The notes below the pieces were generated by a model. That model had not been told where the DNA came from. It searched no databases and saw only the letters and a program-made list of their open reading frames with translations. From the NCBI RefSeq assembly GCF_001506165.1, contig NZ_CP011427.1, positions 1 through 64,000 on the forward strand: DNA of 64,000 nt, written 5' to 3'. Within the stretch, counting starts at the first letter, position 1. Each line of letters opens with the position of its first letter. This DNA is from Pantoea vagans (lineage in GTDB: Bacteria > Pseudomonadota > Gammaproteobacteria > Enterobacterales > Enterobacteriaceae). Below are positions 3,243 through 22,544 of the stretch, in pieces. Both the position numbers and the translations under genes were made by a program.

Positions 3243-4244
3243 ATGCTGATCCCTCAACCCTATTTACTGTTCCTTGGCGATGTCACCGATCCACTGGCTG
3301 CTAAAACCGCGCGCGCATTCATGTCTGGCGACCGGAGCAGTGCGTGGGCGAAATTAAACTGCCGGGCTGTACTGTCAGCCTGGGTCTGGACGTGCTCGAT
3401 ATTGCAACGGCAAAAGAGCGTGGGGCAAAAACCCTGGTACTGGGTACCGCTAATGCCGGTGCTATCTGCCTGAGCACTGGCTTGAAACCGTTAAAGGTGC
3501 CATTAAAGCCGGTATGAACGTGGCCAGCGGTCTGCATCATCGTCTGGTGGATGAGCCGAGCTGGTGGCGTTAGCGCAAGAGTTTGGTGTGGAACTGTTTG
3601 ACCTGCGCCATATGCGTCCAAAACTGAATGTCGGCAGCGGTAAGAAGCGTACAGGTAAGCGAGTGCTTACTGTTGGCACCGACTGCTCGGTGGGCAAAAT
3701 GTACACCTCACTGGCACTGGAAGCCGCCATGCGTGAGCGCGGCATGAAAGCTGATTTCCGTGCCACCGGCCAAACCGGCATTCTGGTGGCGGGTGAAGGG
3801 ATTGCGATTGATGCGGTGATTGCCGACTTCATCGCCGGTGCGGTTGAAGCGTTGTCACCGGCCAATGACGCCGACCACTGGATATCGTGGAAGGTCAGGG
3901 TTCCCTGTTCCATCCTTCTTATGCGGGCGTCAGCATGGGTCTGATCCATGGTGCGCAGCCGCACTGGCTGGTGATGTGTCATGAAATGGGCCGTCCACAT
4001 ATGCGTCATTTGCCGCATCAGCCGATGGTCAGCCTGAAATTGTGTTGAAGCCAACCTGCGCGCCGCTCATGTCACCAGCGACAATGTGCAACTGGCCGGT
4101 TTCGCCATCAACACCTCAAACTACAGCGAAGCGGAAGCGCGCGCCTTCTGCGCAGAAGTCAGTGCCGAATTCGGCGTGCCAGCAACCGACCCAGTGCGTT
4201 TTGGTATTGCAGATATCGCTGCACTGCTGCAGGAGCGTGGCTAA
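3243..4244 (+). pseudogene. dgcN: DgcN-like D-glutamate N-acetyltransferase (DUF1611), about five frameshifts
   Basis: Members of this P-loop family (DUF1611) are described as N-acetyltransferases that start D-glutamate breakdown. Reading across frames gives one continuous protein of about 334 residues: MLIPQPYLLFLGDVTDPLAAKTA, VWRPEQCVGEIKLPG, GTANAGG-YLPEHWLETVKGAI, ASGLHHRL, then the P-loop region RVLTVGTDCSVGKMYTSLAL and DFRATGQTGILVAGEGIAIDA, ending DPVRFGIADIAALLQERG. Frame breaks lie near 3311, 3462, 3556, 3883 and 4043; each is explained by one missing base, mostly a lost G in a GG or GGG run. The gene is followed one base later by dgcA. Either the operon head is decaying or the consensus is poor here; the uniform error type favours the latter. 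Confidence 0.75.
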
Positions 4245-4245
4245 T

Positions 4246-5212
4246 ATGCGGCGCATGCAGATTGAAGTGCTTGAGCTGCCGCTGGCGCGTCCCTTTGCGA
4301 TCTCACGTGCACACGCACGGCTGTAACCGTCATCCGCGTCACGCTGGAGCAAAACGGTTTTATTGGTCGTGGCGAATGCACACCGGACGCCCGCGCTACG
4401 ATGAAAACGCCAGACAGCGTGCAGGCCGAACTGGAAGCGCTGGCGCGAGGATGTCGAAGCTGGCTTAAGCCGTCTCGATCTGCAACGTCGTATCTCTGCC
4501 GGTTCAGCGCGAAATGCGCTGGACTGCGCGCTGTGGCGTCTGGATGCGGCACTCGGCCAAACAGACGCTGTGGCAACAGTGTGAGCGGGTTGCACCGCCT
4601 TCGGTGATTACCGCTGAACCTTAAGCCTCGATTCAAGTTGAAAACATGGCCGCGGCGGCGGCGGATGCGGTTTCACGCGGTGCCATCCTGCTGAAATTAA
4701 GCTTAATCGCGATGAGATTCTGGAAAAGGTTGCGGCGATTCGCGCCGTTGCACCGCGTGCCACGCTGATCATTGACGCAACGAAGCCTGGTCAGGTGTGG
4801 ATCTGCACAGCCTGCTCACCGCTTTGCAAGCCTACAACATCGCCATGGTCGAACAGCCACTGCCTGCCGGTCAGGATCAGGACTGCAACGTTTTCCCCAT
4901 CCCATTCCGGTGTGTGCCGACGAAAGCTGTCACACCCGTGAAGATATCGCGCAGCTGCGTAATCGCTACGAAATGATCAACATCAAGCTGGATAAATGCG
5001 GTGGTCTGACCGAAGCCTTGGCGATGGTCGAAGAAGCACAGAAGCTGGATATGCGTTTGATGGTGGGCTGCATGTTGGGCTCTTCACTGGCGATGGAAGC
5101 CGCGCTGCCGGTGGCGATTGCCGCCGAGCATGTCGATCTGGATGGCCCGATTTGGCTGGCCGCCGATAGCTCACCTTTCCTTACCTACGCTCAAGGCCGA
5201 ATCCGGCTGTAA
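4246..5212 (+). pseudogene. dgcA: DgcA-like N-acetyl-D-glutamate racemase / dipeptide epimerase, many frameshifts
   Basis: An enolase-superfamily protein of about 322 residues when frames are joined. Visible blocks are MQIEVLELPLARPFAISRA, VTVIRVTLEQNGFIGRGEC, SAGSARNALDCALWRLDAAL, LIIDA(N)EAW-SGVDLHSL, VEQPLPAG, IPVCADESCHTREDI and INIKLDKCGGLTEALAMV. These include the metal-binding D/E/D positions and the C-terminal catalytic lysine of the epimerase group. Known relatives racemise N-acetyl-Glu (DgcA) or epimerise L-Ala-D/L-Glu; both fit the peptide context. At least seven frame breaks are needed (near 4312, 4392, 4448, 4558, 4620, 4698, 4779 and 4883). Most are single missing bases; the one near 4620 could instead be a substitution making TAA. 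The last 146 codons are intact. Confidence 0.72.
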
Positions 5213-5227
5213 CCGCACGAGGCAACG

Positions 5228-7092
5228 ATGACGGACACTTTACTTACTCCCAACGCCGCCAGCGTTGCCGGTTCCGCGCCGGTCCTCGCGATTCAGGATC
5301 TCAGCGTCTCGTTTCGCGGCCGCAGCGGCGAAACCAGGCTCTCAAAGGCATCAGTTTTGCGATTCATCCGGGCGAAATTGTCGCCGTGGTGGGCGAAAGC
5401 GGCTCAGGAAAATCGGTCACGTCGCTGGCGGTGATGGGCTTACTGGCAGCATCGGGGCGCATCGATCGCGGCAGCATGCAGTTCCGCGATCGCCAAGGCA
5501 AAGCGCATGCCCTGGAGAAGCTGGATGAAACACAGCGCCGTGCGTTACGCGGCCGTGAGATGGCGATGATTTTTCAGGAGCCGATGACCTCGCTCAACCC
5601 GGTATTGCGGGTAGGCGATCAGCTCACGGAAGCGCTGCGCGATCACCAGCTGTGTGATAAACCCACGGCGGATGCACGTGCGCGTGAACTGCTGCGTCAG
5701 GTGCGTATTGCTGATGTCGATCGCATCATGAAAAGCTACCCGCATTCGCTGTCGGGTGGCATGCGTCAACGCGTGATGATCGCGCAGGCATTGGCCTGCG
5801 ATCCCCAGTTGTTAATTGCCGATGAACCGACCACCGCGCTGGACGTAACGGTTCAGGCGCGCATTCTTCACATCCTGCGCGATCTGCAACGTGAAAAGCA
5901 GATGGCGGTACTGTTTATTACCCATGACATGGGCGTGGTGGCGGAAATCGCCGACCGTGTGGTGGTAATGCTGCGCGGTGAAGTGGTAGAGGAGGGCACA
6001 GTCGATGAGATTTTCAACGCCGCTCAACATCCTTACACCCAGGCCCTGCTCGCGGCGGTGCCCAAGCTCGGCGATATGCGTGAGCACAGCTGGCCGCAGC
6101 GTTTCCCATTGCTGGGTGCGCCACACAGCCATAACGCGGAACAGCGCACCGCCCGTTATGACGAAACCCCACTGCTGGATGTGCGTGGCCTGAAAGTCTA
6201 TTACCCGATCCGCAGCGGAATCTTCTCCGCGCTGACGCATCAGGTGCACGCGGTCGAGCAGATCGACTTCAGCTTATGGCCGGGGGAAACCTTAGCGATT
6301 GTCGGCGAGAGCGGCTGTGGCAAATCCACCACGGGCCGCGCGCTGATGCGTCTGATCAACAGCCATGCCGACAGCATCCATTTTCAGGGCAGTGAAATCG
6401 CCGATCTCAAAGAGGCGCAGTTCCAGCCGCTGCGTAGTGAAATCCAGATGGTGTTTCAGGACCCGTATGCCTCACTCAATCCACGACTCACCGTTGGGTT
6501 CACCATTGCGGAGCCCCTGTTGCTGCACGGTTTGGTGAAGTCGCTGGAGGAAGCCACGCCGCAGGTGAATGCCTTGCTGAAAAGCGTCGGTCTGTTACCG
6601 GAACATGCCCAGCGTTACCCGCATGAGTTCTCTGGTGGCCAGCGTCAGCGCATCGCCATCGCGCGTGCCATGGCGTTGAAACCCAAAGTCATCATTGCCG
6701 ATGAAGCGGTGTCCGCACTGGATGTGTCGGTGCAGGCGCAGGTGGTGAATCTGATGATGGACCTGCAACAGCAAACCGGTGTGGCATGGATTTTCATCTC
6801 GCATGATATGGCGGTGGTGGAACGCATCGCTAATCGCGTGGCGGTGATGTACCTCGGCCAGATTGTTGAACTGGGGCCACGTCAGTCGGTATTTAACCAA
6901 CCGCAACATCCTTATACCCAACGTCTGCTGGCCTCGGTGCCGGTGGCCGATCCACAGAACCGTCAACCCCGCATTTTCGAAGACAGCGAGATCCCCTCGC
7001 CGCTGCGCAAAGTGGGCGAAACGGTCACAAAACCCCGTTATCGCCAGGTTGCGCCGCAACACTGGGTCGCTGACGACATTGCATCGCGTTAA
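5228..7092 (+). CDS. gsiA: GsiA-type dual ATP-binding protein of a peptide/glutathione importer (one frameshift)
   Basis: Cytoplasmic ATPase with two ABC domains fused in one chain, as in E. coli GsiA (623 residues; about 621 here once corrected). The first domain has Walker A GESGSGKS, signature LSGGMRQR and Walker [13 protein letters not shown]; the second has GESGCGKST, FSGGQRQR and VIIADEAVSALD. Each domain ends with the HPYTQ/LLA motif of oligopeptide ATPases. The true start is ATG 5228 (MTDTLLTPNAAS), 15 bases after dgcA. One base appears missing near 5335, where GAAACCAGG should read GAAACCCAG; the intact reading frame then runs from 5386. It energises the permeases encoded at 8756 and 9685. 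Confidence 0.88.
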
Positions 7093-7113
7093 CGCTCAAT
7101 ACCAGGAGATTTC

Positions 7114-8655
7114 ATGAAATCGAATTTTCGCCGTGCTTCACTGGCTGTTGGATTGACCCTCGCGCTGGCTGCTGCCGCGCAGGCGCAGGATCTGCGCATC
7201 TCAATGTATGCAGATATCACCGGGCTGGACCCGCATGATACCTCGGACAACGTCAGCTACTCCGTACAGAGCGGTATCTTTGAACGTCTGTTCCAGTTTG
7301 ATGCCAAGATGAAGCTGCAACCCTGGCTGGCGACCAGTTACACCAGCAATGACACCGCCACCGAATTTACCCTGACGCTGCGTAAAGGCGTCACCTTCCA
7401 GGACGGCACGCCTTTTGATGCCGAGGCGGTAAAAGCCAACCTTGAACGCCTGGCCGATCAAACCAAAGGGCTGAAGCGTAATAGCCTGTACAAGATGATT
7501 GCCAAGGTCACGGTGCTGGCACCGGATCAGGTGAAAATCGATCTCAACCAATCTTTTGGTGCCTTCATCAACACTCTGGCGCACCCGTCGGCGGTGATGT
7601 GGAGCCCGGCGATCCTCAAGCAGTATCCAGAAGAAGCCCAGTTGCGCTTACATCCGGTCGGCACTGGCCCGTTCAAGTTTGTCGAGTGGCAGCCAGGCAA
7701 AGCGGTTTCGCTGGTGAAGTATGACGGCTACTGGCAGAAAGGCTGGCCGAAGGTGGATAAAGTGACCTTCTCACCGAGCCCAGAAGACGCAACGCGCGTA
7801 GCGGCGCTGAAATCAGGGCAGGTCGATGCGATCTGGCCACTGCCATCGGACCTGATCGCCACCGTGCAGAGCGACAGCAAATTGGCGATCCAGCGCGATC
7901 CGAGCATTTACCTCTATTACATGGCGATTAACACCCAGCATAAACCGCTGGCCGACGTGCGAGTGCGCCAGGCGATTAACTACGCCATCGACCGCGATCT
8001 GTGGCTGAAAGTGGCGTTCGCCGGTATGGGTAAAGCGGCTACCTCTGCCATGCCAGAGGGGGTGCAGTTCTACCAGAAGCAGACTGAGCCAAACTACCGC
8101 TATTCCGTCGACCAAGCCAAAGCACTGCTAAAAGAGGCGGGATATCCGAACGGGCTGGATCTTAAACTCTGGACCACCAATGCCACCGCCAGCGTGCGTG
8201 CAGCACAGGTATTGAAAGCGCAGCTGGCGACTGTCGGCATTCGCGCCACCGTGACGCCAATGGATTCCGGCACGCGCAACGCCAAGCTGTGGGGCGTGAA
8301 AGATCCGAAGCAGGCAGAATTTGACCTTTACTACGGTGGCTGGTCAACCTCGACCGGTGATGCAGACTGGGCGCTGCGTCCGCTGTATGCCACCGAATCC
8401 TGGGTGCCAACCTCGTATAACGTTTCCTACTTCAGCAACCCGGATGTGGATAAAGCCATTGCCGGTGGTTTAGCCACGGCCGATCCGGCCAAGCGCGGCG
8501 CAGCCTATGCCGAAGCGCAGAAACTGTTGTGGAAAGATGCACCTGTCGCCTTCCTCGGCACGCCAGATAACCTGGTGGGTAAACGCAGCAACCTGAGCGG
8601 TGTGTCGATGCTGCCGGATGGCAATTTCCTCTATACCCAAGCGGCATTTAAGTAA
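7114..8655 (+). CDS. gsiB: GsiB-type periplasmic peptide/glutathione-binding protein
   Basis: Extracytoplasmic solute-binding protein family 5, 513 residues. The N-terminus is a Sec signal peptide (MKSNFRRASLAVGLTLALAA, cut after AQAQ). Family markers follow: SMYADITGLDPHDT, FTLTLRKGVTFQDGTPFDAEAVKANLERL, GTGPFKFVEWQPG, VRVRQAINYAIDR. Closest by eye to GsiB, the glutathione-binding protein, although the neighbouring D-peptidases suggest that the natural ligand may be another small gamma-glutamyl or D-residue peptide. CAGGAG precedes the ATG. A REPIN hairpin pair lies between this gene and the permease gene, a common arrangement where the binding protein must be made in excess. Confidence 0.9.
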   Translation: MKSNFRRASLAVGLTLALAAAAQAQDLRISMYADITGLDPHDTSDNVSYSVQSGIFERLFQFDAKMKLQPWLATSYTSNDTATEFTLTLRKGVTFQDGTPFDAEAVKANLERLADQTKGLKRNSLYKMIAKVTVLAPDQVKIDLNQSFGAFINTLAHPSAVMWSPAILKQYPEEAQLRLHPVGTGPFKFVEWQPGKAVSLVKYDGYWQKGWPKVDKVTFSPSPEDATRVAALKSGQVDAIWPLPSDLIATVQSDSKLAIQRDPSIYLYYMAINTQHKPLADVRVRQAINYAIDRDLWLKVAFAGMGKAATSAMPEGVQFYQKQTEPNYRYSVDQAKALLKEAGYPNGLDLKLWTTNATASVRAAQVLKAQLATVGIRATVTPMDSGTRNAKLWGVKDPKQAEFDLYYGGWSTSTGDADWALRPLYATESWVPTSYNVSYFSNPDVDKAIAGGLATADPAKRGAAYAEAQKLLWKDAPVAFLGTPDNLVGKRSNLSGVSMLPDGNFLYTQAAFK

Positions 8656-8755: not shown

Positions 8756-9685
8756 ATGTTCGCATACATCATTCGTCGACTACTGGAGATGATCCCCGTC
8801 CTGCTGGTGGTCTCGTTACTGGTGTTCGGCTTTATCAAGCTGCTGCCGGGCGATCCGGCGCGCATTTACGCCGGACCTGATGCGCCGATCGAAGCGGTCG
8901 AAGCCGCACGCCAGCATCTCGGTCTCAACGATCCGTTGCCGCAGCAGTACGTTAACTGGATCGGTGGATTACTGCGTGGCGATCTTGGTGTGACCTATCG
9001 CACCCAACAGCCGGTGCTGGACGTCATCAAACAGGGCTTTATGCCTACGCTGTGGCTGGCGCTGGCAGGGTTTGCCTGGTCAGTGATCCTCGGCTTGTTC
9101 CTCGGCGTTTTCGCGGCGCTTAAACGCGGAAAATGGCAGGACTGGACGCTAATGAGCGTCGCCGTGGGCGGCATCTCAATGCCGACCTTCTGGCTGGGGT
9201 TACTGCTGATCCAGTTCGTCGCCATGCCGTTTGGTCTGTTTTCGGTCAGTGGTTTCAATAAAGCCAGTGACATCATTCTGCCCGCCATCACTCTCGGTTC
9301 CTCCGTGGCCGCCGTGATGGCGCGCTTCACCCGTTCCGCCTTCCTCGAAGTGGCACAGGAAGATTATGTGCGTACCGCCAAGGCCAAAGGGCTACGCAAC
9401 CGGCTGGTAACGTGGAAACACGTGATGCGTAACGCACTGATCCCGGTGATCACCATGTTGGGTCTACAGTTCGGTTTTCTGCTCGGTGGATCGATCGTGG
9501 TGGAGAGTGTCTTCAACTGGCCGGGATTGGGCTGGCTGTTGATCGAGTCGATCAAAGCACAGGATCAACCAGTGATTCAGGCGTTGGTGATGCTGTTCGT
9601 GTTTGAATTTATTGTGATTAACCTGCTGGTGGATCTGCTTTACGCCGTGGTCAACCCAGCCATTCGCCTGCGACAGGAGTCGTGA
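8756..9685 (+). CDS. gsiC: GsiC-type inner-membrane permease
   Basis: Oligopeptide-type permease of 309 residues (E. coli GsiC 306). It begins MFAYIIRRLLEMIPVLLVVSLLVFG, the usual first helix of DppB/GsiC proteins, and has KLLPGDPARIYAG and the EAA loop EDYVRTAKAKGLRNRLVTWKH, which docks onto the ATPase. Several further hydrophobic segments are visible, ending near VNLLVDLLYAVVNPAIR. AAGGAAG lies 4 bases before the ATG. The stop overlaps the start of the next permease gene (TGATG). Confidence 0.93.
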   Translation: MFAYIIRRLLEMIPVLLVVSLLVFGFIKLLPGDPARIYAGPDAPIEAVEAARQHLGLNDPLPQQYVNWIGGLLRGDLGVTYRTQQPVLDVIKQGFMPTLWLALAGFAWSVILGLFLGVFAALKRGKWQDWTLMSVAVGGISMPTFWLGLLLIQFVAMPFGLFSVSGFNKASDIILPAITLGSSVAAVMARFTRSAFLEVAQEDYVRTAKAKGLRNRLVTWKHVMRNALIPVITMLGLQFGFLLGGSIVVESVFNWPGLGWLLIESIKAQDQPVIQALVMLFVFEFIVINLLVDLLYAVVNPAIRLRQES

Positions 9686-10569
9686 TGAGTACACAATCTC
9701 TGTCTGCCGCATCACCTCAGAGCATTCGCTCGCCGTGGCGCGATTTTCTGCACGCCTTCGTGCGCAACCCGCTGGCGCTGGTGTCAGGCGGTTTTGTCTT
9801 GTTGCTGGTGCTGGTGGCGATTTTTGCCCCGTGGCTGGCACCCTGGGACCCGATGGCACCGGACTGGATGGCGCTGTCATCACCGCCGTCCTCGGCACAC
9901 TGGATGGGCACTGATGAACTGGGACGCGACCTGCTAAGCCGCATCATCTATGGTGCGCGCATTTCGCTCTATGTCGGCGTGCTGTCGGTGACGTTGGGCA
10001 TGGTAGTCGGTGTGTTCTTCGGCTTGCTGGCGGGCTATTACGGCCGCTGGGTGGATATGCTCATCATGCGCGGTGCTGATGTGCTGTTCGCTTTCCCGGG
10101 CATGCTGCTGGCGATTGCGGTGGTGGCGATTCTCGGTCCGGGGCTGAATAATGTGATCATTGCCGTGGCGGTGTTTAGCGTCCCGGTGTTTGCCCGCATT
10201 GTGCGTGCCTCCACCTTGTCACTAAAACAAGCGGCCTACGTGGAAGCGGTGCGCTGTGCGGGCGCGCCAGATCGGGTGATTCTGCTGCGCCATATTCTGC
10301 CGGGTACGCTCTCCAATGTGATTGTCTATTTCACCATGCGCATCGGCACCAGTATTCTGACGGCAGCGGGCTTGAGTTTTATTGGCCTCGGTCCAGAACC
10401 CGATGTGCCAGAGTGGGGGAATATCCTGGCGATGAGCCGCAGCATGATGATGGCGGGCTTATGGCACGTCAGTGTCTTCCCCGGCCTGGCGATCTTTATT
10501 ACCGTGCTGGCGTTCAACCTGCTGGGTGATGCGCTGCGCGATACGCTCGATCCTAAACTGAAGAGCTAA
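9685..10569 (+). CDS. gsiD: GsiD-type inner-membrane permease
   Basis: Second permease, 294 residues from ATG 9685 (preceded by ACAGGAG). It has the N-terminal OppC_N-like segment SPWRDFLHAFVRNPLALVSGGFV, the motif HWMGTDELGRDLLSRIIYGAR and the EAA loop AAYVEAVRCAGAPDRVILLRH. It ends with the typical NLLGDALRDTLDPKLKS. It pairs with GsiC to form the channel. A GTG three bases earlier is possible as start but has worse spacing to the ribosome site. Confidence 0.93.
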   Translation: MSTQSLSAASPQSIRSPWRDFLHAFVRNPLALVSGGFVLLLVLVAIFAPWLAPWDPMAPDWMALSSPPSSAHWMGTDELGRDLLSRIIYGARISLYVGVLSVTLGMVVGVFFGLLAGYYGRWVDMLIMRGADVLFAFPGMLLAIAVVAILGPGLNNVIIAVAVFSVPVFARIVRASTLSLKQAAYVEAVRCAGAPDRVILLRHILPGTLSNVIVYFTMRIGTSILTAAGLSFIGLGPEPDVPEWGNILAMSRSMMMAGLWHVSVFPGLAIFITVLAFNLLGDALRDTLDPKLKS

Positions 10570-10571: not shown

Positions 10572-11630
10572 ATGGATTTTCAACAACTGCAGCGCGATCT
10601 GCTGCTGCAACGCTGGCGCAGTGAGCGACAGCTGGGACAACCGCGCAGTGCCTGTGGCCCGACCAATCGCATCAGCGATGTGCCCGGCGTGCGCGTCGGC
10701 CATCACACCTTAGACAACGGTGAGATGCAAACTGGCGTCACGGCAATTGTGCCGCCCGGCGACAACCTGTTCCTCAACCCATTACCCTGCGGTGCGGCGG
10801 TATTTAACGGTTTCGCCAAGCCGGTTGGACTGGTGCAAGTGGAAGAGTTGGGAGTACTGCAAACGCCGATCTTACTGAGCAACACGCTGGCGGTGGGCAC
10901 GCTGTTTACCACTCTGGTGCGCGATGCTATCAGCCGCAACCCGGAACTAGGCCGCAGCCTGCCCACGGTGAACCCGTTAGCGTTGGAGTGCAATGACGGC
11001 TGGCTTAATGATATTCAGGCATTAGCGGTGACCGAAGCCATGGCGCAGCAGGCACTGGATTCCGCCCAGACCGATTTCGCGCGTGGCAGCGTCGGAGCGG
11101 GGCGCGGCATGAGCTGCTTCAGTCTGAAAGGCGGCATCGGTACCGCATCTCGCCTCATTCCTTCCCTGAATGCCACGCTCGGCGTGCTGGTGCTGGCCAA
11201 TTTTGGTGCGCTCACCGCCCTGACGCTCGACGGTGTGCGCCTTGGCGAGATGATTGCCCCATTGTTGCCAGAGCTGACACCACAGCGTGACGCCGGTTCC
11301 ATCATCATTATCATGGCCACCGATGCCGCGCTGGATGCGCGCCAGTTGAAGCGTATCGCTAAACGCGCCGGGGCGGGGTTAGGGCGTTTGGGCAGCTATT
11401 GGGGGCATGGATCCGGCGATATCGCCGTGGCCTTTTCCACCCAAACCACGCCACAGCCGCCGGAAGATGCCGCGCTGGAACCGCTGCTTGCCGCCGCCGC
11501 CGATGCTACTGAACACGCGGTGTTAGATGCCTTACTGAGCGCTGAGGCGGTCAGCGGTTTTCGCGGGCATCACCGACCGTCATTGACGGAAGTACTGGAT
11601 AAACTGGCGACGACATCTCGGTCGGCATAA
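10572..11630 (+). CDS. P1/S58-family aminopeptidase (DmpA-like)
   Basis: Cytoplasmic N-terminal-nucleophile hydrolase of 352 residues. DmpA of Ochrobactrum is an L-aminopeptidase/D-amidase that cuts itself at a Gly-Ser bond. Here RISDVPGVRVGHHTLDNGE, CGAAVFNGFAK, GRGMSCFSLKGGIGTASR and DAGSIIIIMATDA follow that family, and Gly242-Ser243 is the expected self-processing site. It starts two bases after gsiD and so belongs to the importer operon, where it would release N-terminal residues from imported peptides. The last residues (RSA) and the TAA stop come from the REP hairpin at 11620, so the original C-terminus may have been replaced. Confidence 0.88.
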   Translation: MDFQQLQRDLLLQRWRSERQLGQPRSACGPTNRISDVPGVRVGHHTLDNGEMQTGVTAIVPPGDNLFLNPLPCGAAVFNGFAKPVGLVQVEELGVLQTPILLSNTLAVGTLFTTLVRDAISRNPELGRSLPTVNPLALECNDGWLNDIQALAVTEAMAQQALDSAQTDFARGSVGAGRGMSCFSLKGGIGTASRLIPSLNATLGVLVLANFGALTALTLDGVRLGEMIAPLLPELTPQRDAGSIIIIMATDAALDARQLKRIAKRAGAGLGRLGSYWGHGSGDIAVAFSTQTTPQPPEDAALEPLLAAAADATEHAVLDALLSAEAVSGFRGHHRPSLTEVLDKLATTSRSA

Positions 11631-11717: not shown

Positions 11718-12538
11718 ATGAAAATCTTTATCTCTGCCGATATTGAAGGTATTGCGGGCGTGATGCGTCCGGAGCAGTGCTCGCCTGGCCATGCGGAGTA
11801 CCAGCTGGCGCGTGGACTGATGGAACAAGAGGTGAATGCCGCCATTGACGGTGCCTTCGCAGGCGGAGCCACCGAAGTGGTGGTCGCAGACAGCCACGCG
11901 CACTGACCAACCTGCGTGCGGAAAACATCGATCCGCGCGCGCGTATGGTACAGGGCAAACCGCGCGGTTTATCGATGGTGGAAGGCATTGAGCAGCAGCC
12001 GTTTGATGGCCTGTTTTTTATCGGCTATCACAGCGCGGCGGGTGAACCCGGCGTACTGGCTCACACCATCAATGGTCGTGCGTTCTGGCGTATCCACATC
12101 AACGGTAAAGTGATGGGGGAAAGCGATATTTATGCCGCTGCCGCTGCCGAGCAGGGTACGCCGCTGTGGTTAGTCAGTGGCGATGATCAGTTGCAGGGCT
12201 GGATAGCGGAGCACTATCCGTCAGTGGATTATGTCTGCGTGAAACGCGCGATCTCTCATACCTGCGCCGAATCCATCAGCCCGCAGGCGGCACAGCACGC
12301 CATTCGCCATGCCGCTACGGCCGCTGTACAGCGCGCCCGCCAGGTCAGCACCACACGCCTGACGGCACCCTATGAGATGCAATTACAGGCCAGCAAACCG
12401 GTATTAGCGGATTTATTCAGTTTGATTCCCGGTGTGACGCGCATTGATGCGGTGACCGTTGGTTATCGTGCCGATCAGATGGGCACCTTGATCAGCCTGC
12501 TCAGCGCCTTCTCCTATCTGGCCAGTACGCAGTCGTAG
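11718..12538 (+). pseudogene. dppA: DppA-like D-aminopeptidase (M55), one frameshift
   Basis: M55 zinc peptidases release N-terminal D-amino acids; the B. subtilis relative DppA is a decamer. The N-terminal half reads MKIFISADIEGIAGVMRPEQC with the metal-binding D-x-E pair at residues 8 and 10, and VVVADSHAH near residue 61 with the conserved histidine. The frame then breaks at about 11903: CACTGACC should probably be CACCTGACC. The second half (LTNLRAENIDPRARMVQGKPRGL, FIGYHSAAG, GESDI) continues in another frame to 12538. Joined length is 273 residues, the normal size for the family. Only one C is missing, so a consensus error is likely and the gene may be intact in the organism. Confidence 0.82.
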
Positions 12539-15164: not shown

Positions 15165-15901
15165 GCCGGTTCCTCCAGCGTCATGCTGAGATCGAAGAGT
15201 TGAGCGGTATGCGGATGCTGGATGCGTCGCGCGCGCAAATCCTCTGCGCTCAGTTGCTCCACCATCTCACCCTGCTGCATCACCCCAATGCGTTGACACA
15301 GATGCGTCACCACCGCGAGGTTATGCGTCACCATAATGTAGATGAGTTTGCGCTCAGAGCGTAGATCGCTGAGTAAATTGAGGATTTCGGCCTGTACCGA
15401 CACATCCAGTGCGGAGGTCGGTTCATCCAGCAGCAGTACTTCTGGCTCGGCGATCAGGGCGCGGGCAATCGCCACACGCTGGCGCTGGCCGCCCGACAGT
15501 TGATGCGGGTAGCGGAAACGCACGGCGGCAGTCAGGCCAACTTCACTTAATGCCTGGCTGATGCGCTGCTCCGCGCGATCAAGCTGATGCACTAATAACG
15601 GCTCATGCAGAATGCGATCAATGGTTTGACGCGGATGCAGCGAACCGAACGGGTCTTGGAACACCATCTGCACCTGGCGATAGAAGGCGCGGCTGCGTTT
15701 AGCACTCAGCTGCATGCCGCCAAACTGCATACTGCCTTGCCAGTCGGCATTTAGCCCGGCAAGTGCGCGTAAAATGGTGGATTTACCCGAGCCGCTTTCG
15801 CCAACCATGCCAAAGCTTTCGCCGTTCGCGACGGCAAAGCTGACATCTTTCACCACCTGGTGCGCACCAAAGGCAATGCGTAGGTTATCGATTTGAATCA
15901 T
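15161..15901 (-). CDS. Oligopeptide ABC transporter ATPase (DppF/OppF type)
   Basis: Single ABC domain of 246 residues: Walker [11 protein letters not shown]-loop MVFQDPFGSLHPRQT, signature LSGGQRQRVAIARAL, Walker [13 protein letters not shown] and the H-loop MVTHN. It is short for DppF because the C-terminal oligopeptide-specific extension is brief (HPHTAQLF). It is the partner of the ATPase at 16043 and is separated from it by a REPIN-type repeat. It overlaps the D-aminopeptidase gene, linking the importer directly to D-peptide cleavage. Confidence 0.9.
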   Translation of the reverse strand: MIQIDNLRIAFGAHQVVKDVSFAVANGESFGMVGESGSGKSTILRALAGLNADWQGSMQFGGMQLSAKRSRAFYRQVQMVFQDPFGSLHPRQTIDRILHEPLLVHQLDRAEQRISQALSEVGLTAAVRFRYPHQLSGGQRQRVAIARALIAEPEVLLLDEPTSALDVSVQAEILNLLSDLRSERKLIYIMVTHNLAVVTHLCQRIGVMQQGEMVEQLSAEDLRARRIQHPHTAQLFDLSMTLEEPA

Positions 15902-16042: not shown

Positions 16043-16870
16043 CTATTCCCGCCACGCCGCATCGCGCTGTAGTACCGGTAAACGCTCGCGAGGATGTTTC
16101 AACGACGGCAAACAGGCCAGCAACCCGCGTGTATACGGATGCTGCGCCTGCTGCAATTGCCCGGCCTCCAGCAGCTCGACGATACGTCCGGCATACATCA
16201 CCGCCACGCGATCGCAAAAGTGCGACACCAGCGGCAGATCGTGACTGATCAGGATCAACCCCATACCGCGCGCCGACACCAGATCGTCAATCAACTTAAG
16301 GATCTCCGCCTGCACCGTGGCGTCCAGTGCGCTGGTGGGTTCATCCGCAATCAGCAATTCCGGGTCCGGTGCCAGCATCATGGCAATCATCACGCGCTGG
16401 CCCATGCCACCAGACACTTCATGCGGGTAGCGTTTCGCCACTGCGGCTGCATCACGAATCTTCACCTGCTCCAGCAGGTCAATCGCCGCCAGCATCGCGG
16501 CTTTGCGGCTGCCGCCCTTGTGCTCGCGCCAGGCTTCGGCAATCTGCTGTCCAATGGTCATCACCGGATTGAGCGAATATTTTGGGTCCTGCAGGATAAA
16601 GCCCACGCGCTTACCGCGAATCTGACGCAGCACTTTCTCGCTGGCACCGCGCAGATCAATACCATCGAAACGCAGCACATCGGCGTTCACTTCGGCGTTG
16701 CCGGGCAAGAGCTGCATCAGGCTGCGTGCGGTCAGGGATTTGCCCGAACCACTCTCGCCAACGATGGCGAACTTCTCGCGGCCGACGCTAAAACTCACGC
16801 CGCGGACCGCTTCAAAGGTTTCAGTGCGACTGCGAAACGCAATACGCAGGTTTTCAATTTCCACCAACAT
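16043..16870 (-). CDS. Oligopeptide ABC transporter ATPase (DppD/OppD type)
   Basis: ABC ATPase of 275 residues with Walker [10 protein letters not shown]-loop [15 protein letters not shown], signature [15 protein letters not shown] and Walker [13 protein letters not shown], then the C-terminal [14 protein letters not shown] motif of oligopeptide/nickel transporters. The signature carries GMGQR where GMRQR or GQRQR is more usual. It starts immediately after the upstream permease stop (TAA-ATG), so translation is probably coupled. Confidence 0.9.
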
Positions 16871-17770
16871 TTAGCGCTCCTTGGGATCCAGCACGTCACG
16901 CAGACCGTCGCCGAGAAAGTTAAACGCCAGTGAGGTCAGGAAAATCGCGATACATGGCATCAGCGGCACCCACCATTCGCTGAACAGGAAGCGGCGTGCG
17001 GTGGCAATCATCGTGCCCCACTCTGGCGAAGGGGGCTGTGCGCCCATACCGAGGAAGCCCAGGCTGGCGGCAGTGATGATGATGGAACTCATATCCAGCG
17101 TGATGCGCACAATCAGGCTCGGCACACACAACGGCATAATGTGGCGCAGGATAATGCGCATTGGCGAGGCACCGGTCAGCCGGCTGGCAGCGATAAAATC
17201 GCTGTGGCGGAATTGCAGGGTCTCTGCACGTGCCAGACGGGCATACGGCGGCCAGGCGGTTAAGGCAATCGCCAGAATCGCACTCTCCACGCCGGGCTTG
17301 AGGGCGGCGACAAACGCCAGCGCCAGAATCAAACGCGGAAAGGCGAGAAAGATATCGGTAATACGCATCAAGGCTTTATCGACAATGCCCCCGGCATAAC
17401 CGGCGATGCAGCCAATCAGCAGGCCGAGCGGGGCGGTCAGCAGTACCACCGCGATCACCATGCCCAGCGTGGTACGTCCGCCGTAGATAATACGCGTCCA
17501 GACATCACGGCCCAGCTCATCGGTGCCGAGCCAGTGAGCCGCAGACGGCGCAGCTAAGCGGTTTTCCAGATGCTGAACACTGGGGTCAAACGGCGTTAAC
17601 CACGGAGCAAACAGCGCCAGCAGCAGCATCACGGCAATCACCGCTAATCCGGCCATCGCCAGCGGGTTGCTGCGCAGACTGAGCCACAGGCGATAACGAC
17701 GGCCCCACACCGCCTGACGGCGATTCGCAGGTGTGTCATCCAACAACCAGTCACGAGAGAAGAAAATCAT
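16871..17770 (-). CDS. Oligopeptide ABC permease (DppC type)
   Basis: Inner-membrane permease of 299 residues. The start at 17770 (MIFFSRDWLLDD) overlaps the upstream stop as ATGA and is preferred over an ATG 18 bases earlier. Family motifs: HWLGTDELGRDVWTRIIYGGRTTLG, GASPMRIILRHIMP in the EAA loop, and the C-terminal AFNFLGDGLRDVLDPKER. Several transmembrane helices are evident. Confidence 0.92.
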   Translation of the reverse strand: MIFFSRDWLLDDTPANRRQAVWGRRYRLWLSLRSNPLAMAGLAVIAVMLLLALFAPWLTPFDPSVQHLENRLAAPSAAHWLGTDELGRDVWTRIIYGGRTTLGMVIAVVLLTAPLGLLIGCIAGYAGGIVDKALMRITDIFLAFPRLILALAFVAALKPGVESAILAIALTAWPPYARLARAETLQFRHSDFIAASRLTGASPMRIILRHIMPLCVPSLIVRITLDMSSIIITAASLGFLGMGAQPPSPEWGTMIATARRFLFSEWWVPLMPCIAIFLTSLAFNFLGDGLRDVLDPKER

Positions 17771-18777
17771 TTTACGCGCGGGTCCCAAAGTCGATAAAGA
17801 AGGTCAGCCAGCAGGTTGAGCAGCACATACACCGTGCCCACCAGGAGCGTTGCACCCACTACGGGGTTCATGTCGGCGTTCATCAGAGAAGTGGTGAGAT
17901 ACTGGCCGAGACCAGGCCAGGCAAAGACGTTTTCCGTCACCACCGCACCTTCCAGCAAACCGGCATAGGTCAGCGCCAGCACGGTCACCAGCTGCACGGC
18001 CACGGTAGGAAACGCATGCCGCCAAATCACCCGGCGTGAGGACAATCCCTTGGCCCGCGCGGTAATCACGAACTCGCCGCTCAATGCATTGAGCATGAAG
18101 GTGCGCGTCATACGCGTGATGTAGGCCATGCTGAAGTAAGCGAGGATTAACACCGGCTGGGCCATGTGCGCCAGCGCATCCCAGAAGGCATCGGTCTCAC
18201 CTGCCAGCAGTGAGTCGATGGTGAGGAATCCGGTGACCTGCGGCACCATATCCTGCCAGATGATGTCCTGCCGACCTGGACCGGGCGCGATGCCCAACAC
18301 GGCGTAGAACACCAGAAGACTGAGTAACGCCAGCACGAACACCGGCAGCGAGTGTCCTGCCAGACACACCACGCGAATGGTTTGATCCACCCAGGTGCTC
18401 TGCCGCACTGCCGCCCACACGCCGAGCGGGATGCCGATCAGTGCGGCGATAATGATTGCGGCCGTGGCTAGCTCCATGGTGGCGGGGAAGAAGCGCGCAA
18501 TATCGGTGGTGACCGGGTTCGACGTCAGAACCGATCTCCCCAGATCACCATGTAATAGCTGGTTGAGGTAATGGCCAAACTGGATGTACAGGGGCTGATC
18601 CAGCCCCATTTCCACCCGCACACGATCCACTACCGACTGCGGTGCGTTATCACCTACCGCCGCCAGCACCGGATCGGTGGGCATCACACGACCAATAAAG
18701 AAGGTCAGAACCGACAAACCAAACAGCGTCAGCACCAGGCTTCCCAAGGTGCTGACGATTTTTTTCAGTATTGGCAT
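17767..18777 (-). CDS. Oligopeptide ABC permease (DppB type)
   Basis: Inner-membrane permease of 336 residues beginning MPILKKIVSTLGSLVLTLFGLSVLTFFI, with VMPTDPVLAAVGDNAP and the EAA-type loop SGEFVITARAKGLSSRRVIWRH. The end has NLLADLLYRLWDPRVK. Its start overlaps the stop of the binding-protein gene (TGATG), so the two are co-translated in one operon. Confidence 0.92.
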   Translation of the reverse strand: MPILKKIVSTLGSLVLTLFGLSVLTFFIGRVMPTDPVLAAVGDNAPQSVVDRVRVEMGLDQPLYIQFGHYLNQLLHGDLGRSVLTSNPVTTDIARFFPATMELATAAIIIAALIGIPLGVWAAVRQSTWVDQTIRVVCLAGHSLPVFVLALLSLLVFYAVLGIAPGPGRQDIIWQDMVPQVTGFLTIDSLLAGETDAFWDALAHMAQPVLILAYFSMAYITRMTRTFMLNALSGEFVITARAKGLSSRRVIWRHAFPTVAVQLVTVLALTYAGLLEGAVVTENVFAWPGLGQYLTTSLMNADMNPVVGATLLVGTVYVLLNLLADLLYRLWDPRVK

Positions 18778-20372
18778 CAGGCTTTTTTCACCTGATCATA
18801 CGGCCACTGCTCCAGCACGGTCATGTGTACATCTTTGATATTCTTGCCGCAGGCGATATTTTTGGTTTTCTGCATCATGAAGATAAACGGACTCTTCTCA
18901 CGGCCTAACTGCTGAATCTGCTGATAGAGCGCGATGCGTTTGGCCGGATCCGGCTCGTGCAACGCCTGTTCTGTCAGCTTGTTAAACTCGTCATCAGACC
19001 AGCTGCAGCGCCATGCCAGGGTGCGTGCACGTGCGTTGTCGCTGTTATCGGTATTGACGCAGAAAGCTTCGGTGTTGGAGTTAGGATCGAAATAGTCTGC
19101 ACCCCACACGGTGAGCGCCAACTGATGCTGACGGGCACGCATTTTGGTCAACACCTGACGGTTCTCGGCGGCAATCAGCGACACTTTGATACCAATCGCA
19201 CCCAGCTGCGTCTGAATGGCCTGGGCAATATCTGGATAAGGCTGCATGGAGTAGTGGTCGAGGGTGATCTCAAAGCCATTCGGATAACCGGCTTCTGCCA
19301 GCAGTGACTTGGCTTTGGCCACATCTTTGTGGAATGGCGTGTCGTCCAGCGCGGCGGGGAAGCCACTCGGCAGGAAACTTTGATGGGTGATAAAGCTCAT
19401 CGACAGAATGTTTTTCTGGATGCTGTCGTAGTCCAGCGCCCACTTCAGGGCCTGCCACACCTGAGGTTTTTTCAGGTATTCGTTATTGGTGTTGCATGAC
19501 ATCAGCATGATGGCCGACAGCGATTGATTTACCAGAGACACGCTGCTGTCGTTTTTCAGCGGCAAAAGTTGTTCAGTGGTGAGGTCGTAGGCCGCATCGA
19601 CATCGCCTTTCTTCACCATCAACGCCTGCGCGGCTGGGTCAGCAATGTGCTTGAGGATCACGCGCTTAATCTTGCTCTGCGCGGCATATTGCGGGCTCAG
19701 TTCAAGAATCACCGTCTCACTGGCCTTCCAGGTGCGCAGAGTGAAAGCACCCGAACCGGCGCTGTGCTGCTTCAGCCAGGCATTACCAAAGTCATTGTTC
19801 TGCTGATTGGCTTCACAGGCTTTTTTCGACACGATGCTGCCCACAGTGGCGGACAGGCAATACAGCAGGAAGGTTTCTGCTGCCGGTGCGCCAAGTTTCA
19901 TTTCTACGGTATGGGCATCTTTCGCCGTCACCATCTGGGTGACGTTGTCTTTGGTGAAGCCAAATTGGTTGATGATAAAGGCCGGGCTTTTATCCAGTTT
20001 AACGATACGTTCAATCGAATAGGCGACGTCTTCTGCCGTCAGTGGCGTACCGTCGGCGAATTTTGCCGCTGGATCGAGGTGGAAGGTGTAAGTGCCGTTA
20101 TCGCTGCTGACATCCCAGCTTTTGGCCAGTTGGCCGACGATTTTTTCCGCGTGCTGCGGATCGGGCATCACCAACTTTTGGTACATGTTGCCGCAGATTT
20201 GGCCGCCAGTGGCTTCGAAGCTTTCATGCGGGTCAAGGCTGGTAATGTTGTCGAGCTGCATGGCCATCACCAACATGCTGGGTGGGGTATCGGCAAATGC
20301 AGTGTTAAGGCTGAGGTAGGAAAAAGCAGGTACGGCTGCGCATCCTGCGAGAAAACGTCTTCTGGTTACCAT
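18777..20372 (-). CDS. Peptide-binding protein with Tat-like signal
   Basis: Solute-binding protein family 5, 531 residues. The leader VTRRRFLAGCAAVPAFSYL resembles a twin-arginine signal, cut near AFA-DTPP; most relatives use Sec, so a folded export route is possible but unproven. Family blocks include ITSLDPHESFE, GTYTFHLDPAAKFADGTPLTAEDVAYSIERI and KPQVWQALKWALDY. It is the first gene of the operon that ends with the D-aminopeptidase, so the ligand is probably a peptide with D-residues. The gene lies divergent from the M19 dipeptidase, with a 199-bp AT-rich promoter region between. Confidence 0.9.
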   Translation of the reverse strand: MVTRRRFLAGCAAVPAFSYLSLNTAFADTPPSMLVMAMQLDNITSLDPHESFEATGGQICGNMYQKLVMPDPQHAEKIVGQLAKSWDVSSDNGTYTFHLDPAAKFADGTPLTAEDVAYSIERIVKLDKSPAFIINQFGFTKDNVTQMVTAKDAHTVEMKLGAPAAETFLLYCLSATVGSIVSKKACEANQQNNDFGNAWLKQHSAGSGAFTLRTWKASETVILELSPQYAAQSKIKRVILKHIADPAAQALMVKKGDVDAAYDLTTEQLLPLKNDSSVSLVNQSLSAIMLMSCNTNNEYLKKPQVWQALKWALDYDSIQKNILSMSFITHQSFLPSGFPAALDDTPFHKDVAKAKSLLAEAGYPNGFEITLDHYSMQPYPDIAQAIQTQLGAIGIKVSLIAAENRQVLTKMRARQHQLALTVWGADYFDPNSNTEAFCVNTDNSDNARARTLAWRCSWSDDEFNKLTEQALHEPDPAKRIALYQQIQQLGREKSPFIFMMQKTKNIACGKNIKDVHMTVLEQWPYDQVKKA

Positions 20373-20571
20373 GACAACTCCAAGTTATTGATTATTAAAA
20401 TTAAATTATTTTATTTTGCTGTTTTATGTCTTGACTTTCCCCGTGTGCAGGGGGATTAATAATGGGATTAAGTCATTTGTTTCACGCTTGAATGCTTGCC
20501 TCTTTTTGGTGCAACCTGCCCCGCTAATTGGCAGCGCTTGCGCTTTCTCCCGAACCTGGAACCGATACAAC

Positions 20572-21627
20572 ATGTCTGACACGCTTAACCTCGACATACC
20601 GGTCTTTGACGGTCACAACGATGTGCTCAATAAACTGTGGCAGCACCATCAGCCTGATGCGGTGCAGGCATTTCTGCAGGGCACCGGCCGTGGCCAAATG
20701 GATCTTCCCCGTATCCGCCAAGGAAATATGGTAGGTGGGATTTTTGCCACCTGGGTGCCGTCACATCCTCTGATTGCAAGAAGTGCGCCAGACCTCTCAG
20801 ATTTTCCTCAGGAAATTATTGGCGCTGCGCGTGAGGCGACTTTTTCGATGCTGGCGCTGCTGCTGCGTATTGAGCAGGCTTCTGCAGGGCAGGTGAAAAT
20901 TTGCCGCAGCGCGCGCGACATTCGCGAGTGCATGGCGAAAGGCGTGCTGGCGGTGGTGATGCATGTGGAAGGGGCCGAAGCGCTCGATACTCATGGTGAG
21001 CTGCTGGATATTCTCTATGCCAGCGGCTTACGTACCCTGGGGCCACTGTGGAGCCGTCCGAATCAGTTTGGTGATGGCGTGCCGTTCCTTTACCCCTCAT
21101 CACCGGATATCGGCAACGGTCTGACGGCAGCGGGCAAGCAATTGGTGCGCGACTGTAACCGCCGCCGCATCATGGTTGATCTGTCGCACATGGATGAAAA
21201 AGGCTTCTGGCATACCGCGGAAATCAGTGATGCACCGCTGGTGGCGAGCCACTCCAATGCCCATGTCATTAGCGCGCAATCGCGCAACCTCACCGATCGC
21301 CAGCTGGCGGCGATCAAAGAAACCCACGGCTTTGTTGGTGTCAACTTCGCGGTGCCATTCCTGCGGGAAGATGGCGACCGTCATGCGCCGACCACCGTTG
21401 ATGCCATCGTGCAGCACGTGGAATATCTGCTGGAAAAAGTGGGCGAAGATGGCGTGGGCTTTGGCTCTGATCTGGATGGCGCGACCATGCCGGGGGATAT
21501 GAAAGATGTCGCCGGTTTCCCGTTGATCGTCAACGCATTGGCGGCACGCGGTTATTCGCGTGAGCTGCTGGAAAAAATCTGCCACGGCAACTGGCTGCGA
21601 GTGCTCGAAGCCACCTGGGGCGAATAA
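20572..21627 (+). CDS. M19 (renal) dipeptidase family zinc peptidase
   Basis: Binuclear zinc dipeptidase of 351 residues from ATG 20572; the longer in-frame reading to 20416 lies in the promoter region and is unlikely. Metal and active-site positions are visible: His15-x-Asp17 (DGHNDVL), bridging Glu133 (HVEGAEAL), His206 (DLSHMD), His227 (ASHSNAH) and Asp300 (GFGSDLDG). Enzymes of this family cleave X-D-amino-acid dipeptides as well as L,L ones. There is no signal peptide, so action is cytoplasmic. It is followed two bases later by a LysR gene and is divergent from the second peptide importer. Confidence 0.92.
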   Translation: MSDTLNLDIPVFDGHNDVLNKLWQHHQPDAVQAFLQGTGRGQMDLPRIRQGNMVGGIFATWVPSHPLIARSAPDLSDFPQEIIGAAREATFSMLALLLRIEQASAGQVKICRSARDIRECMAKGVLAVVMHVEGAEALDTHGELLDILYASGLRTLGPLWSRPNQFGDGVPFLYPSSPDIGNGLTAAGKQLVRDCNRRRIMVDLSHMDEKGFWHTAEISDAPLVASHSNAHVISAQSRNLTDRQLAAIKETHGFVGVNFAVPFLREDGDRHAPTTVDAIVQHVEYLLEKVGEDGVGFGSDLDGATMPGDMKDVAGFPLIVNALAARGYSRELLEKICHGNWLRVLEATWGE

Positions 21628-21629
21628 TC

Positions 21630-22544
21630 ATGCGGCTGCGTCATATTGAGGTGTTTCAGGCGATTGTGCAGACCGGCAGCATCAGTGCGGCGGCGCGATT
21701 GCTGAATGTGTCGCAGCCGAATGTCAGCCGGGTGCTGAATCATGCAGAACAGCAACTGGGTTTCGCGCTGTTTGAGCGGCGGGCGCAAGGGATGATTGTT
21801 ACCGCAGAAGGGCGGCGTTTGTTACCGGAAGTGGAAGATCTCTACCAGCGTTTGCAGTCGATTACCCAGCTAACCGAGCAGCTGCGACGCGGCGAGGGAC
21901 AAATTGTCCGTGTCGGTGCGGCACATGCTTTTGGTCAGATGGTGTTAGCCCCGGCGCTGGTGAACTGGCGTCAACAAGCGGCGTCGGTGAGCGTGGAGTT
22001 AGTGACTGAGCACTTCAGTACGCTGTGCCAGATGATCATGGATAATCAGCTCGATTTTGCACTGGTGTTTGGTCAGCAGGTGGATGCCGATTTGCTCGCG
22101 GAGCCGCTGTTTCAATCCTCAATGGTGGCGTTATTGCCGCAGCACCACACACATAACGCCCCCGCCACGCTGGAGTGGCTGTGCGCCAATAACCTGTTGA
22201 TGATGCAGAATCATGACCCGCTGGGCCGCGTGTTGCATCGCGCCCTGCGTGATAAAGGTCTGGACCCGGCGGTGTCACTGTCGATTAAAACCTACTCGGT
22301 GATTGCGGATATGGTGCTGGCGGGCGGCGGTGTCGGCGTGGTGGATCTGTTCACCGCCTGCCGCTATGCCGACCAACTGAAATTACTGCCAGTGGCACAG
22401 CCGCTGCCGTTTGAAGTGATGCTGATCAGCCGCCGCGATCAGCCGCAATCGCAGTCAACGTTGCAGTTAAAGCAGGTGATTCGCAATAAGTTATGGGAAA
22501 TTGCACGTCAGTGTGAAACGCGGTTTTTTACCAGGTCGGCATAA
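21630..22544 (+). CDS. LysR-type regulator
   Basis: Transcription factor of 304 residues with an N-terminal winged helix (MRLRHIEVFQAIVQTGSISA, AARLLNVSQPNVSRVLNHAE) and the LysR effector domain. It is co-transcribed with the dipeptidase and lies beside the divergent importer operon, so it is the best candidate to control both. The last residues (RSA) and the stop are contributed by the REP hairpin at 22534, as in the DmpA-like gene. Confidence 0.92.
   Translation: MRLRHIEVFQAIVQTGSISAAARLLNVSQPNVSRVLNHAEQQLGFALFERRAQGMIVTAEGRRLLPEVEDLYQRLQSITQLTEQLRRGEGQIVRVGAAHAFGQMVLAPALVNWRQQAASVSVELVTEHFSTLCQMIMDNQLDFALVFGQQVDADLLAEPLFQSSMVALLPQHHTHNAPATLEWLCANNLLMMQNHDPLGRVLHRALRDKGLDPAVSLSIKTYSVIADMVLAGGGVGVVDLFTACRYADQLKLLPVAQPLPFEVMLISRRDQPQSQSTLQLKQVIRNKLWEIARQCETRFFTRSA

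What the first reader, a model, noticed from the sequence alone, without database searches (positions are those of the whole stretch)
3243..22544. A 19-kb gene neighbourhood for import and breakdown of D-amino-acid-containing peptides
Two peptide ABC importers are interleaved with six enzymes whose families act on D-residues or mixed peptides: DgcN-like and DgcA-like (D-Glu to L-Glu through N-acetyl forms), DmpA-like S58 peptidase, M55 D-aminopeptidase, S12 D-aminopeptidase and M19 dipeptidase. One LysR gene sits beside the divergent promoter. Each family is known; I do not know of a description of them together as one system. A natural substrate could be muropeptides, poly-gamma-D-glutamate fragments or D-residue siderophores/lipopeptides. 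The joint role is inference.
Basis: partly seen in the sequence, partly recalled or inferred. Interest (0 to 1): 0.72.

Follow-up and report, generated by a model that had tools for sequence, protein, structure and literature searches.

The report
D-glutamate peptide uptake gene cluster
A bacterium of the Pantoea group carries a conserved set of genes that probably imports small peptides containing mirror-image amino acids, cuts them up and turns the freed D-glutamate into normal glutamate, with a second, optional importer-and-peptidase set next to it.

Summary
The neighbourhood is real and conserved, but it is two modules. Module A is dgcN-dgcA, a Gsi-like importer, an S58 and an M55 peptidase, plus a LysR gene. 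Module B is an S12 D-aminopeptidase-like protein with a second importer, divergent from an M19 dipeptidase, lying between M55 and LysR. In 59 other genomes of the genus, 39 have both M55 and DgcN, none has M55 alone, and 38 of the 39 have them 2.9-7.7 kb apart on one strand. The S12 marker of module B occurs in 27, always with M55. New here: the LysR is the probable ortholog of the regulator beside plain dgcN-dgcA pairs (sole hit in 16 of 16 such genomes). A palindrome mostly 90-110 bp before the operon recurs before those pairs (15 of 16 with that LysR, 0 of 14 without). I read module A as a D-glutamate-type regulon with peptide import and peptidases added. The window begins at a contig end repeated at the other end with indels, so dgcN and dgcA look broken only in this copy. 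Substrates are not shown. No enzyme family is new; the combination is a new variant of a known kind.

The parts
3141..3155 (+). Remnant of the operator-like palindrome before dgcN; this copy lacks two bases relative to the tail copy, which reads as a near-palindrome at L005:10542-10558, centred 97 bp before dgcN
3243..4244 (+). dgcN, D-Glu N-acetyltransferase family (NF041892); several frame breaks in this copy, intact 335 aa in the tail copy
4246..5212 (+). dgcA, N-acetyl-D-Glu racemase / dipeptide-epimerase family (passes both NF042940 and PRK15129); frame-broken here, intact 321 aa in the tail copy
5228..7092 (+). Fused double ATPase, GsiA-like; frame broken before 5386 in this copy
7114..8655 (+). 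Periplasmic binding protein, GsiB-like (SBP_bac_5)
8756..9685 (+). Permease, GsiC-like
9682..10569 (+). Permease, GsiD-like
10572..11630 (+). S58 (DmpA/BapA-type) aminopeptidase, intact; the GSII stretch that holds DmpA's nucleophile (recalled) is kept
11718..12538 (+). M55 D-aminopeptidase (DppA-like); frame slip near 11903
12621..13457 (+). FAA-hydrolase-family protein (PF01557), seen in 15 of 61 loci; not in the finding; start codon inferred
13638..15164 (-). S12 D-aminopeptidase-like protein, whole-length fold like 1EI5
15161..15901 (-). Importer 2 ATPase
16043..16870 (-). Importer 2 ATPase
16871..17788 (-). Importer 2 permease (OppC/DppC type)
17767..18777 (-). Importer 2 permease (DppB type)
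18777..20372 (-). Importer 2 binding protein (SBP_bac_5)
20373..20571 (.). Divergent intergenic region; no copy of the dgcN-type palindrome (best match 6 mismatches)
20572..21627 (+). M19 dipeptidase (start codon inferred; longest open frame starts at 20416)
21630..22544 (+). LysR regulator, probable ortholog of the LysR beside plain dgcN-dgcA pairs

Best explanation
Module A is a D-glutamate-type catabolic regulon (dgcN-dgcA under a dgcN-associated LysR) that has gained a peptide importer and two cytoplasmic peptidases. Proposed working: the Gsi-like importer brings short peptides rich in D-residues or D-Glu into the cell, most likely peptidoglycan-derived ones. S58 and M55 remove N-terminal L- and D-residues. 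Freed D-Glu is acetylated by DgcN and racemised by DgcA to N-acetyl-L-Glu. The LysR, sensing D-Glu or a derivative, acts at the palindrome before dgcN. Module B is an optional companion that widens the range: a second importer, a D-aminopeptidase (S12) and an L,D-dipeptidase (M19). Shown: gene content, conserved order, co-occurrence, LysR orthology by a one-way best-hit test, recurrence of the palindrome, conserved catalytic motifs. Inferred: every substrate, LysR binding and its ligand, and joint function of A and B.
For: DgcN passes its curated cut-off, 526 vs 480 bits, as does DgcA, 427 vs 400. Order conserved in 61 loci. Genus co-occurrence 39 of 59 with 0 M55-only. M55 beside S58 in 5 of 6 order-wide genomes. 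LysR: in 16 of 16 genomes chosen for having a LysR beside a plain dgcN pair, the sole hit at E<=1e-25 is that gene. Palindrome within 300 bp, up to 3 mismatches: 64 of 65 module-A loci of the Enterobacterales-type set, 15 of 16 plain pairs with the LysR, 0 of 14 without, 8 of 5300 shuffles. DgcA's fate follows dgcN: the loop arginine is kept in 45 of 45 module-A rows with dgcN and in 2 of 20 without it, and the DANE motif in 45 of 45 against 4 of 19 readable. The module-A pair coexists with a second, plain pair in G153 and G175. The genome has a separate YcjG-type epimerase (600 bits vs cut-off 343) next to MpaA, so dgcA need not be the housekeeping murein epimerase. M55 metal-site residues align with DppA. 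The S12 model aligns with D-aminopeptidase 1EI5 over 453 residues. Module B's marker never occurs without M55 in the genus sample (27 of 27, 26 within 2 kb).
Against: The DgcA cut-off does not discriminate: the genome's own YcjG also passes it (426 vs 400 bits), and the window's DgcA also passes the L-Ala-D/L-Glu epimerase model (361 vs 343); the DLDGP motif does not tell them apart either. So DgcA's role rests on its place beside dgcN. A clade of 20 loci has module A without dgcN in the operon, and 8 of the 14 such genomes searched have no DgcN at all. L060 and L063 have dgcN without an adjacent dgcA. Six Burkholderiales-type loci have importer-S58-M55 with neither gene (a seventh, L078, ends too soon to tell). 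Nine of 14 order-wide S58 genomes lack a full-length M55, and two S58-M55 genomes lack DgcN. The importer falls below the Gsi cut-offs, so its substrate is open. No dgcN-type palindrome was found before module B, so joint regulation is unsupported. The palindrome was first seen in module-A loci, so only the plain pairs test it independently, and those are related lineages; the Fisher values assume independent genomes.
Confidence: 0.6

Rival explanations
1. The operon scavenges murein dipeptides and DgcA works as an L-Ala-D-Glu epimerase, as YkfB does in Bacillus; DgcN is a secondary addition.
For: DgcA passes the epimerase model and aligns over its whole length with E. coli 1JPD; the DgcA model does not exclude a YcjG; dgcN-less operons persist; importer-S58-M55 exist without dgcN and dgcA; B. 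subtilis ykfA-D lie beside the dpp importer (PMC2954226 passages).
Against: The genome already has YcjG and MpaA. In the dgcN-less clade the loop arginine is lost in 18 of 20 rows but kept in 45 of 45 with dgcN, which suggests that dgcA lost its original constraint once dgcN was gone; that this arginine binds the Glu side chain is recalled. The operon's LysR and palindrome are those of plain dgcN-dgcA pairs.
Confidence: 0.25
2. Modules A and B are independent systems that merely sit together; B imports and cleaves other peptides under other control.
For: B's S12 marker is absent from 12 of 39 module-A genomes of the genus sample and 34 of 61 loci; no dgcN-type palindrome before B in the window or 26 loci.
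Against: The S12 marker was never found without M55 in the genus sample (27 of 27) and lies within 2 kb of M55 in 26 of 27; 0 of 196 other order-wide genomes have the S12 protein at E<=1e-30, so B has no independent existence in that sample.
Confidence: 0.35
3. The real substrates are glutathione-like gamma-glutamyl peptides, or beta- or isopeptides, rather than D-peptides.
For: The binding protein's best solved relative is YliB (GsiB), 1UQW, at 403 bits; S58 also includes beta-peptidyl aminopeptidases.
Against: All importer-1 subunits fall below the glutathione-specific cut-offs; M55, S12 and dgcN-dgcA are D-oriented families.
Confidence: 0.12
4. The broken dgcN, dgcA and M55 frames mean the cluster is decaying in this strain.
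For: Frames are broken in the window copy; the M55 slip is shared by both copies.
Against: The tail copy has intact dgcN, dgcA and ATPase genes; bases missing from the window copy lie mostly between 1 and 6 kb; the S58 gene and the module-B, M19 and LysR genes are open frames.
Confidence: 0.07

Closest known systems
dgcN-dgcA D-glutamate pathway (Yu et al. 2023 ISME J; the paper is not held, known here through citing passages)
   Same: Same two enzyme families over curated cut-offs; probable ortholog of the LysR beside such pairs and recurring palindrome before dgcN
   Different: Here the pair heads an operon with a peptide importer, S58 and M55; 30 of 33 order-wide full-length dgcN loci lack these
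Bacillus subtilis dppA-E / ykfA-D murein-peptide cluster (passages of PMC2954226 and PMC3305447; dppA as the M55 member is recalled, with 1HI9 named DppA)
   Same: Peptide importer beside an M55 D-aminopeptidase and a YcjG-family epimerase
   Different: No YkfA or YkfC family among the neighbourhood proteins scanned; extra DgcN, S58, S12 and M19; Gsi-type importer; LysR
E. coli gsiABCD glutathione importer
   Same: Same subunit make-up, with a fused double ATPase; nearest relatives by model
   Different: All four subunits fall below the Gsi equivalog cut-offs
Ochrobactrum anthropi S12 D-aminopeptidase (1EI5)
   Different: About 19% identity; far below the NCBIfam cut-off, 94 vs 443 bits

Membership tests
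dgcN-dgcA D-glutamate pathway | DgcN at curated equivalog cut-off | tested here: met
   526 vs 480 bits, tail copy
dgcN-dgcA D-glutamate pathway | DgcA at curated equivalog cut-off, next to dgcN | tested here: met
   427 vs 400 bits, adjacent; weak test, since the own YcjG also scores 426
dgcN-dgcA D-glutamate pathway | N-acetylation of D-Glu and racemisation of N-acetyl-D-Glu | not testable with these tools
   enzyme assays needed
dgcN-dgcA D-glutamate pathway | Same LysR and site as plain dgcN-dgcA pairs (a feature found here, not taken from a definition) | tested here: met
   16 of 16 sole-hit test; palindrome counts; binding itself not tested
Glutathione importer Gsi | GsiA-D equivalog cut-offs | tested here: not met
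   831/1077, 462/594, 397/463, 409/484 bits
M55 D-aminopeptidase | Pfam M55 cut-off and DppA metal-site residues (residue list recalled) | tested here: met
   over cut-off; D8, E10, H60, H104, H115, E133 of 1HI9 aligned identically in relative L009
M55 D-aminopeptidase | DppA equivalog of NCBIfam | tested here: not met
   167 vs 430 bits with the full-length relative
S12 D-aminopeptidase (DAP) | Beta-lactamase-like domain plus two C-terminal barrels | tested here: met
   model pLDDT 78 with strand runs at 348-415 and 428-503; 1EI5 aligned 2..506, though 2QMI is tied in Z with fewer residues and rmsd 11.8; barrel shape not inspected
S12 D-aminopeptidase (DAP) | NCBIfam NF009622 cut-off | tested here: not met
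   94 vs 443 bits
S58 DmpA/BapA | Pfam S58 and the GSII stretch around the autoprocessing serine (recalled for DmpA) | tested here: met
M19 dipeptidase | Pfam M19 over cut-off, metal-site motifs aligned with 3LY0 | tested here: met
   which residues bind metal is recalled
B. subtilis dpp/ykf murein-peptide cluster | gamma-D-Glu-diamino-acid endopeptidase (YkfC) and LD-carboxypeptidase (YkfA) | tested here: not met
   no such Pfam family among the 20 window proteins scanned or the tail-copy DgcN, DgcA and ATPase; the rest of the genome was not searched for them

The most novel reading that the evidence does not exclude
Module A is a dedicated, mobile regulon for eating peptidoglycan peptides. 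A D-Glu-sensing LysR controls import, peptidase cleavage and D-Glu-to-L-Glu conversion in one operon. It has also entered Klebsiella plasmids and a few E. coli chromosomes, so the D-Glu pathway described in marine bacteria has a peptide-fed counterpart in plant- and host-associated enterobacteria.
Probability: 0.4. Interest if true: 0.6.

Novelty: new variant of a known kind. Interest (0 to 1): 0.45.

Why it matters
The DgcN-DgcA route was described in marine bacteria and haloarchaea (title cited). If the reading is right, a common enterobacterial gene set couples uptake of D-peptides to that route, and it gives a defined promoter site and regulator with which to test what signal turns it on. 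It would also give a role to plasmid genes now annotated as a glutathione importer and generic peptidases beside dgcN and dgcA.

Tried and rejected
A shared LysR site before module B: none in the window or in 26 loci with SBP2 and M19 (best 5-8 mismatches). Using the DLDGP motif or the NF042940 cut-off to separate epimerase from DgcA: neither discriminates. A simple link 'no DgcN anywhere means changed loop': Brenneria and Symbiopectobacterium-type genomes have DgcN elsewhere, yet most of their dgcA rows have lost the arginine too. Reading the tail M55 and S58 hits as second gene copies: rejected, because they are the overlapping contig end. Chance expectation of the palindrome: 0.15 per 21 kb at up to 3 mismatches in 20 shuffles of one locus; 8 of 5300 upstream shuffles.

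Literature: ten searches. No listed paper, by title and abstract start, describes dgcN-dgcA together with this importer and these peptidases; one search returned none at all, one search listed 20 of 577 and one search listed 10 of 59. The library is open-access only, and the original DgcN paper is not held. Papers were seen as search listings, and as passages for PMC12363236, PMC10845958, PMC2954226 and PMC3305447.

Sampling limits: the 80 loci (the best 80 of 110) were chosen by S58, so they cannot show how often the other genes lack S58; the order and genus samples were used for that. In one search three loci without room were dropped (L007, L058, L065) and 16 of the 80 were set aside as outside the Enterobacterales-type group. 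Of the hits, ten at 157-166 bits were not followed. In the tree L091 was dropped as a short hit; L084 and L097 gave identical DgcA. L039 could not be searched. In one search, 21 loci plus the window were aligned. In one search, 11 loci outside the set had no site, but L070, L072, L076 and L078 are not proper tests (importer elsewhere or contig end), and loci such as L058, L065 and L067 gave no first gene to measure from. One search's distances include G209, whose dgcN and M55 are decayed.


Full report
What is there. The window is the start of a single 4,313,264-base contig. The closest S58 relative found is in Pantoea rwandensis, 96%. From 3.2 to 22.5 kb there are two gene sets. Module A (+ strand) is dgcN, dgcA, a fused double ATPase, a binding protein, two permeases, an S58 peptidase and an M55 peptidase. 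An FAA-hydrolase-family gene, not in the finding, follows. Module B (- strand) is an S12 protein, two ATPases, two permeases and a binding protein, divergent from an M19 dipeptidase gene and the LysR gene.

Assembly artefact. The contig's last 12.6 kb repeat window 1-12594 at 99.46% identity with 41 gap openings. Bases missing from the window copy lie mostly in its first 6 kb. In the window copy dgcN, dgcA and the start of the ATPase gene are frame-broken; in the tail copy they read 335, 321 and 621 aa. The M55 gene is slipped near 11903 in both copies, so a real lesion there is not excluded. In the genus sample 38 of the 39 other M55 genomes match 261 or 262 of the family's 264 positions with no stop inside, and L009 reads 273 aa.

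Conservation. Of 80 S58-anchored loci, 64 belong to the Enterobacterales-type group and 61 have room on both sides: 58 have all four importer-1 genes, 59 dgcA, 59 M55, 41 dgcN, 27 module B (26 with M19), 15 FAA. Without S58 as anchor: in 59 other genomes of the genus, DgcN is in 41 (two only as pieces without M55), M55 in 39, both in 39, M55 alone in none; 38 of 39 lie 2.9-7.7 kb apart on one strand and the 39th is split between contigs. The S12 protein is in 27, all with M55, 26 within 2 kb. In the order-wide sample of 197 genomes (the own one included), 33 full-length dgcN loci outside this genome all have dgcA in the stretch, but only 3 carry module A. Two of these genomes have both a plain pair and a module-A pair. 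M55 is full length in 6 others, and in 5 it adjoins S58; S58 itself is in 14 others, 9 of them without full-length M55.

History of dgcA. In a 95-row tree, module-A DgcA forms one supported clade (except Halotalea L075, a long branch), and the 20 dgcN-less loci form one supported clade inside it, so one loss of dgcN suffices. In L026 the operon starts with dgcA next to rph and pyrE. Of 14 such genomes searched, 8 have no DgcN anywhere and 6 have one elsewhere. The loop arginine is kept in 45 of 45 module-A rows with dgcN but in 2 of 20 without, and the DANE motif in 45 of 45 against 4 of 19 readable. This suggests that dgcA's original specificity was tied to dgcN and relaxed or shifted once dgcN left; the rows are related, so it is few events.

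Regulator. The window's LysR was searched in 16 genomes chosen because a LysR lies beside a plain dgcN pair. Each gave one hit at E<=1e-25, and in 16 of 16 it was that gene (31-38% identity). Aligned upstream regions showed a palindrome, TATAACCTNAGGTTATA, mostly centred 90-110 bp before the first gene, farther (up to about 260 bp) in some Lonsdalea and Brenneria loci. Counting up to 3 mismatches within 300 bp: 64 of 65 module-A loci of the Enterobacterales-type set, 15 of 16 plain pairs with the LysR, 0 of 14 plain pairs without it, 0 of 11 loci outside that set (four of them not proper tests), and 8 of 5300 shuffles. The pattern was derived from module-A loci, so only the plain pairs are an independent test, and they share ancestry. 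No such site lies before module B. This moves the regulator's likely target from the divergent promoter named in the finding to dgcN, 18 kb away.

Spread. S58 relatives at 80-90% identity lie on 35 plasmid records; Klebsiella accounts for 20 of all 166 records matched. pKPN_CZ (typed conjugative) has the whole of module A, with the palindrome (3 mismatches) at the same distance. Five of 5,426 E. coli genomes match the 3.9-kb importer-S58 stretch over at least 80% of its length; the one opened (AH04) carries the same unit on the chromosome.

Judgement. What I add is the split into two modules, the LysR and palindrome link to plain dgcN pairs, the single loss of dgcN with decay of dgcA's motifs, and the assembly artefact. 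The substrate is still inference.

Noticed in passing
window 1-12594 and L005:7376-20000: Apparent untrimmed circular overlap at the contig ends with many indels; genes near the contig start appear falsely broken.
   Followed up: yes
window 2597-2641, 2965-3009, 13460-13643; L005:9997-10180: A repeat of up to 184 bp between genes (92.9-97.8% identity between copies) occurs before dgcN and between the FAA and S12 genes.
   Followed up: no
L138 and L139 (Klebsiella plasmid pKPN_CZ, E. coli AH04): Module A with a tautomerase gene and a second, divergent LysR gene upstream of dgcN, and insertion sequences nearby.
   Followed up: partly
L130-L132 (Pectobacterium genomes G260, G255, G264): A second DgcA scoring 497-502 bits in genomes with no DgcN hit anywhere; its partner is unknown.
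   Followed up: no
dgcN-less module-A loci, e.g. L026, L031, L034: Eleven of 19 readable dgcA rows have DAR in place of the DAN of the DANE motif, and 18 of 20 have lost the loop arginine; function may have shifted.
   Followed up: partly
L041 and L062: dgcN-dgcA-S58 without importer 1 and M55; in L062 module B follows directly, as if its importer had taken over.
   Followed up: no
L060 and L063: dgcN followed directly by the importer ATPase with no adjacent dgcA; one DgcA over the cut-off lies elsewhere in each genome.
   Followed up: partly
L026, L031, L034, L049, L053 near 13.0-13.3 kb: Pectobacterium loci have a weaker palindrome (3 mismatches) just before the LysR gene, perhaps self-regulation.
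   Followed up: no
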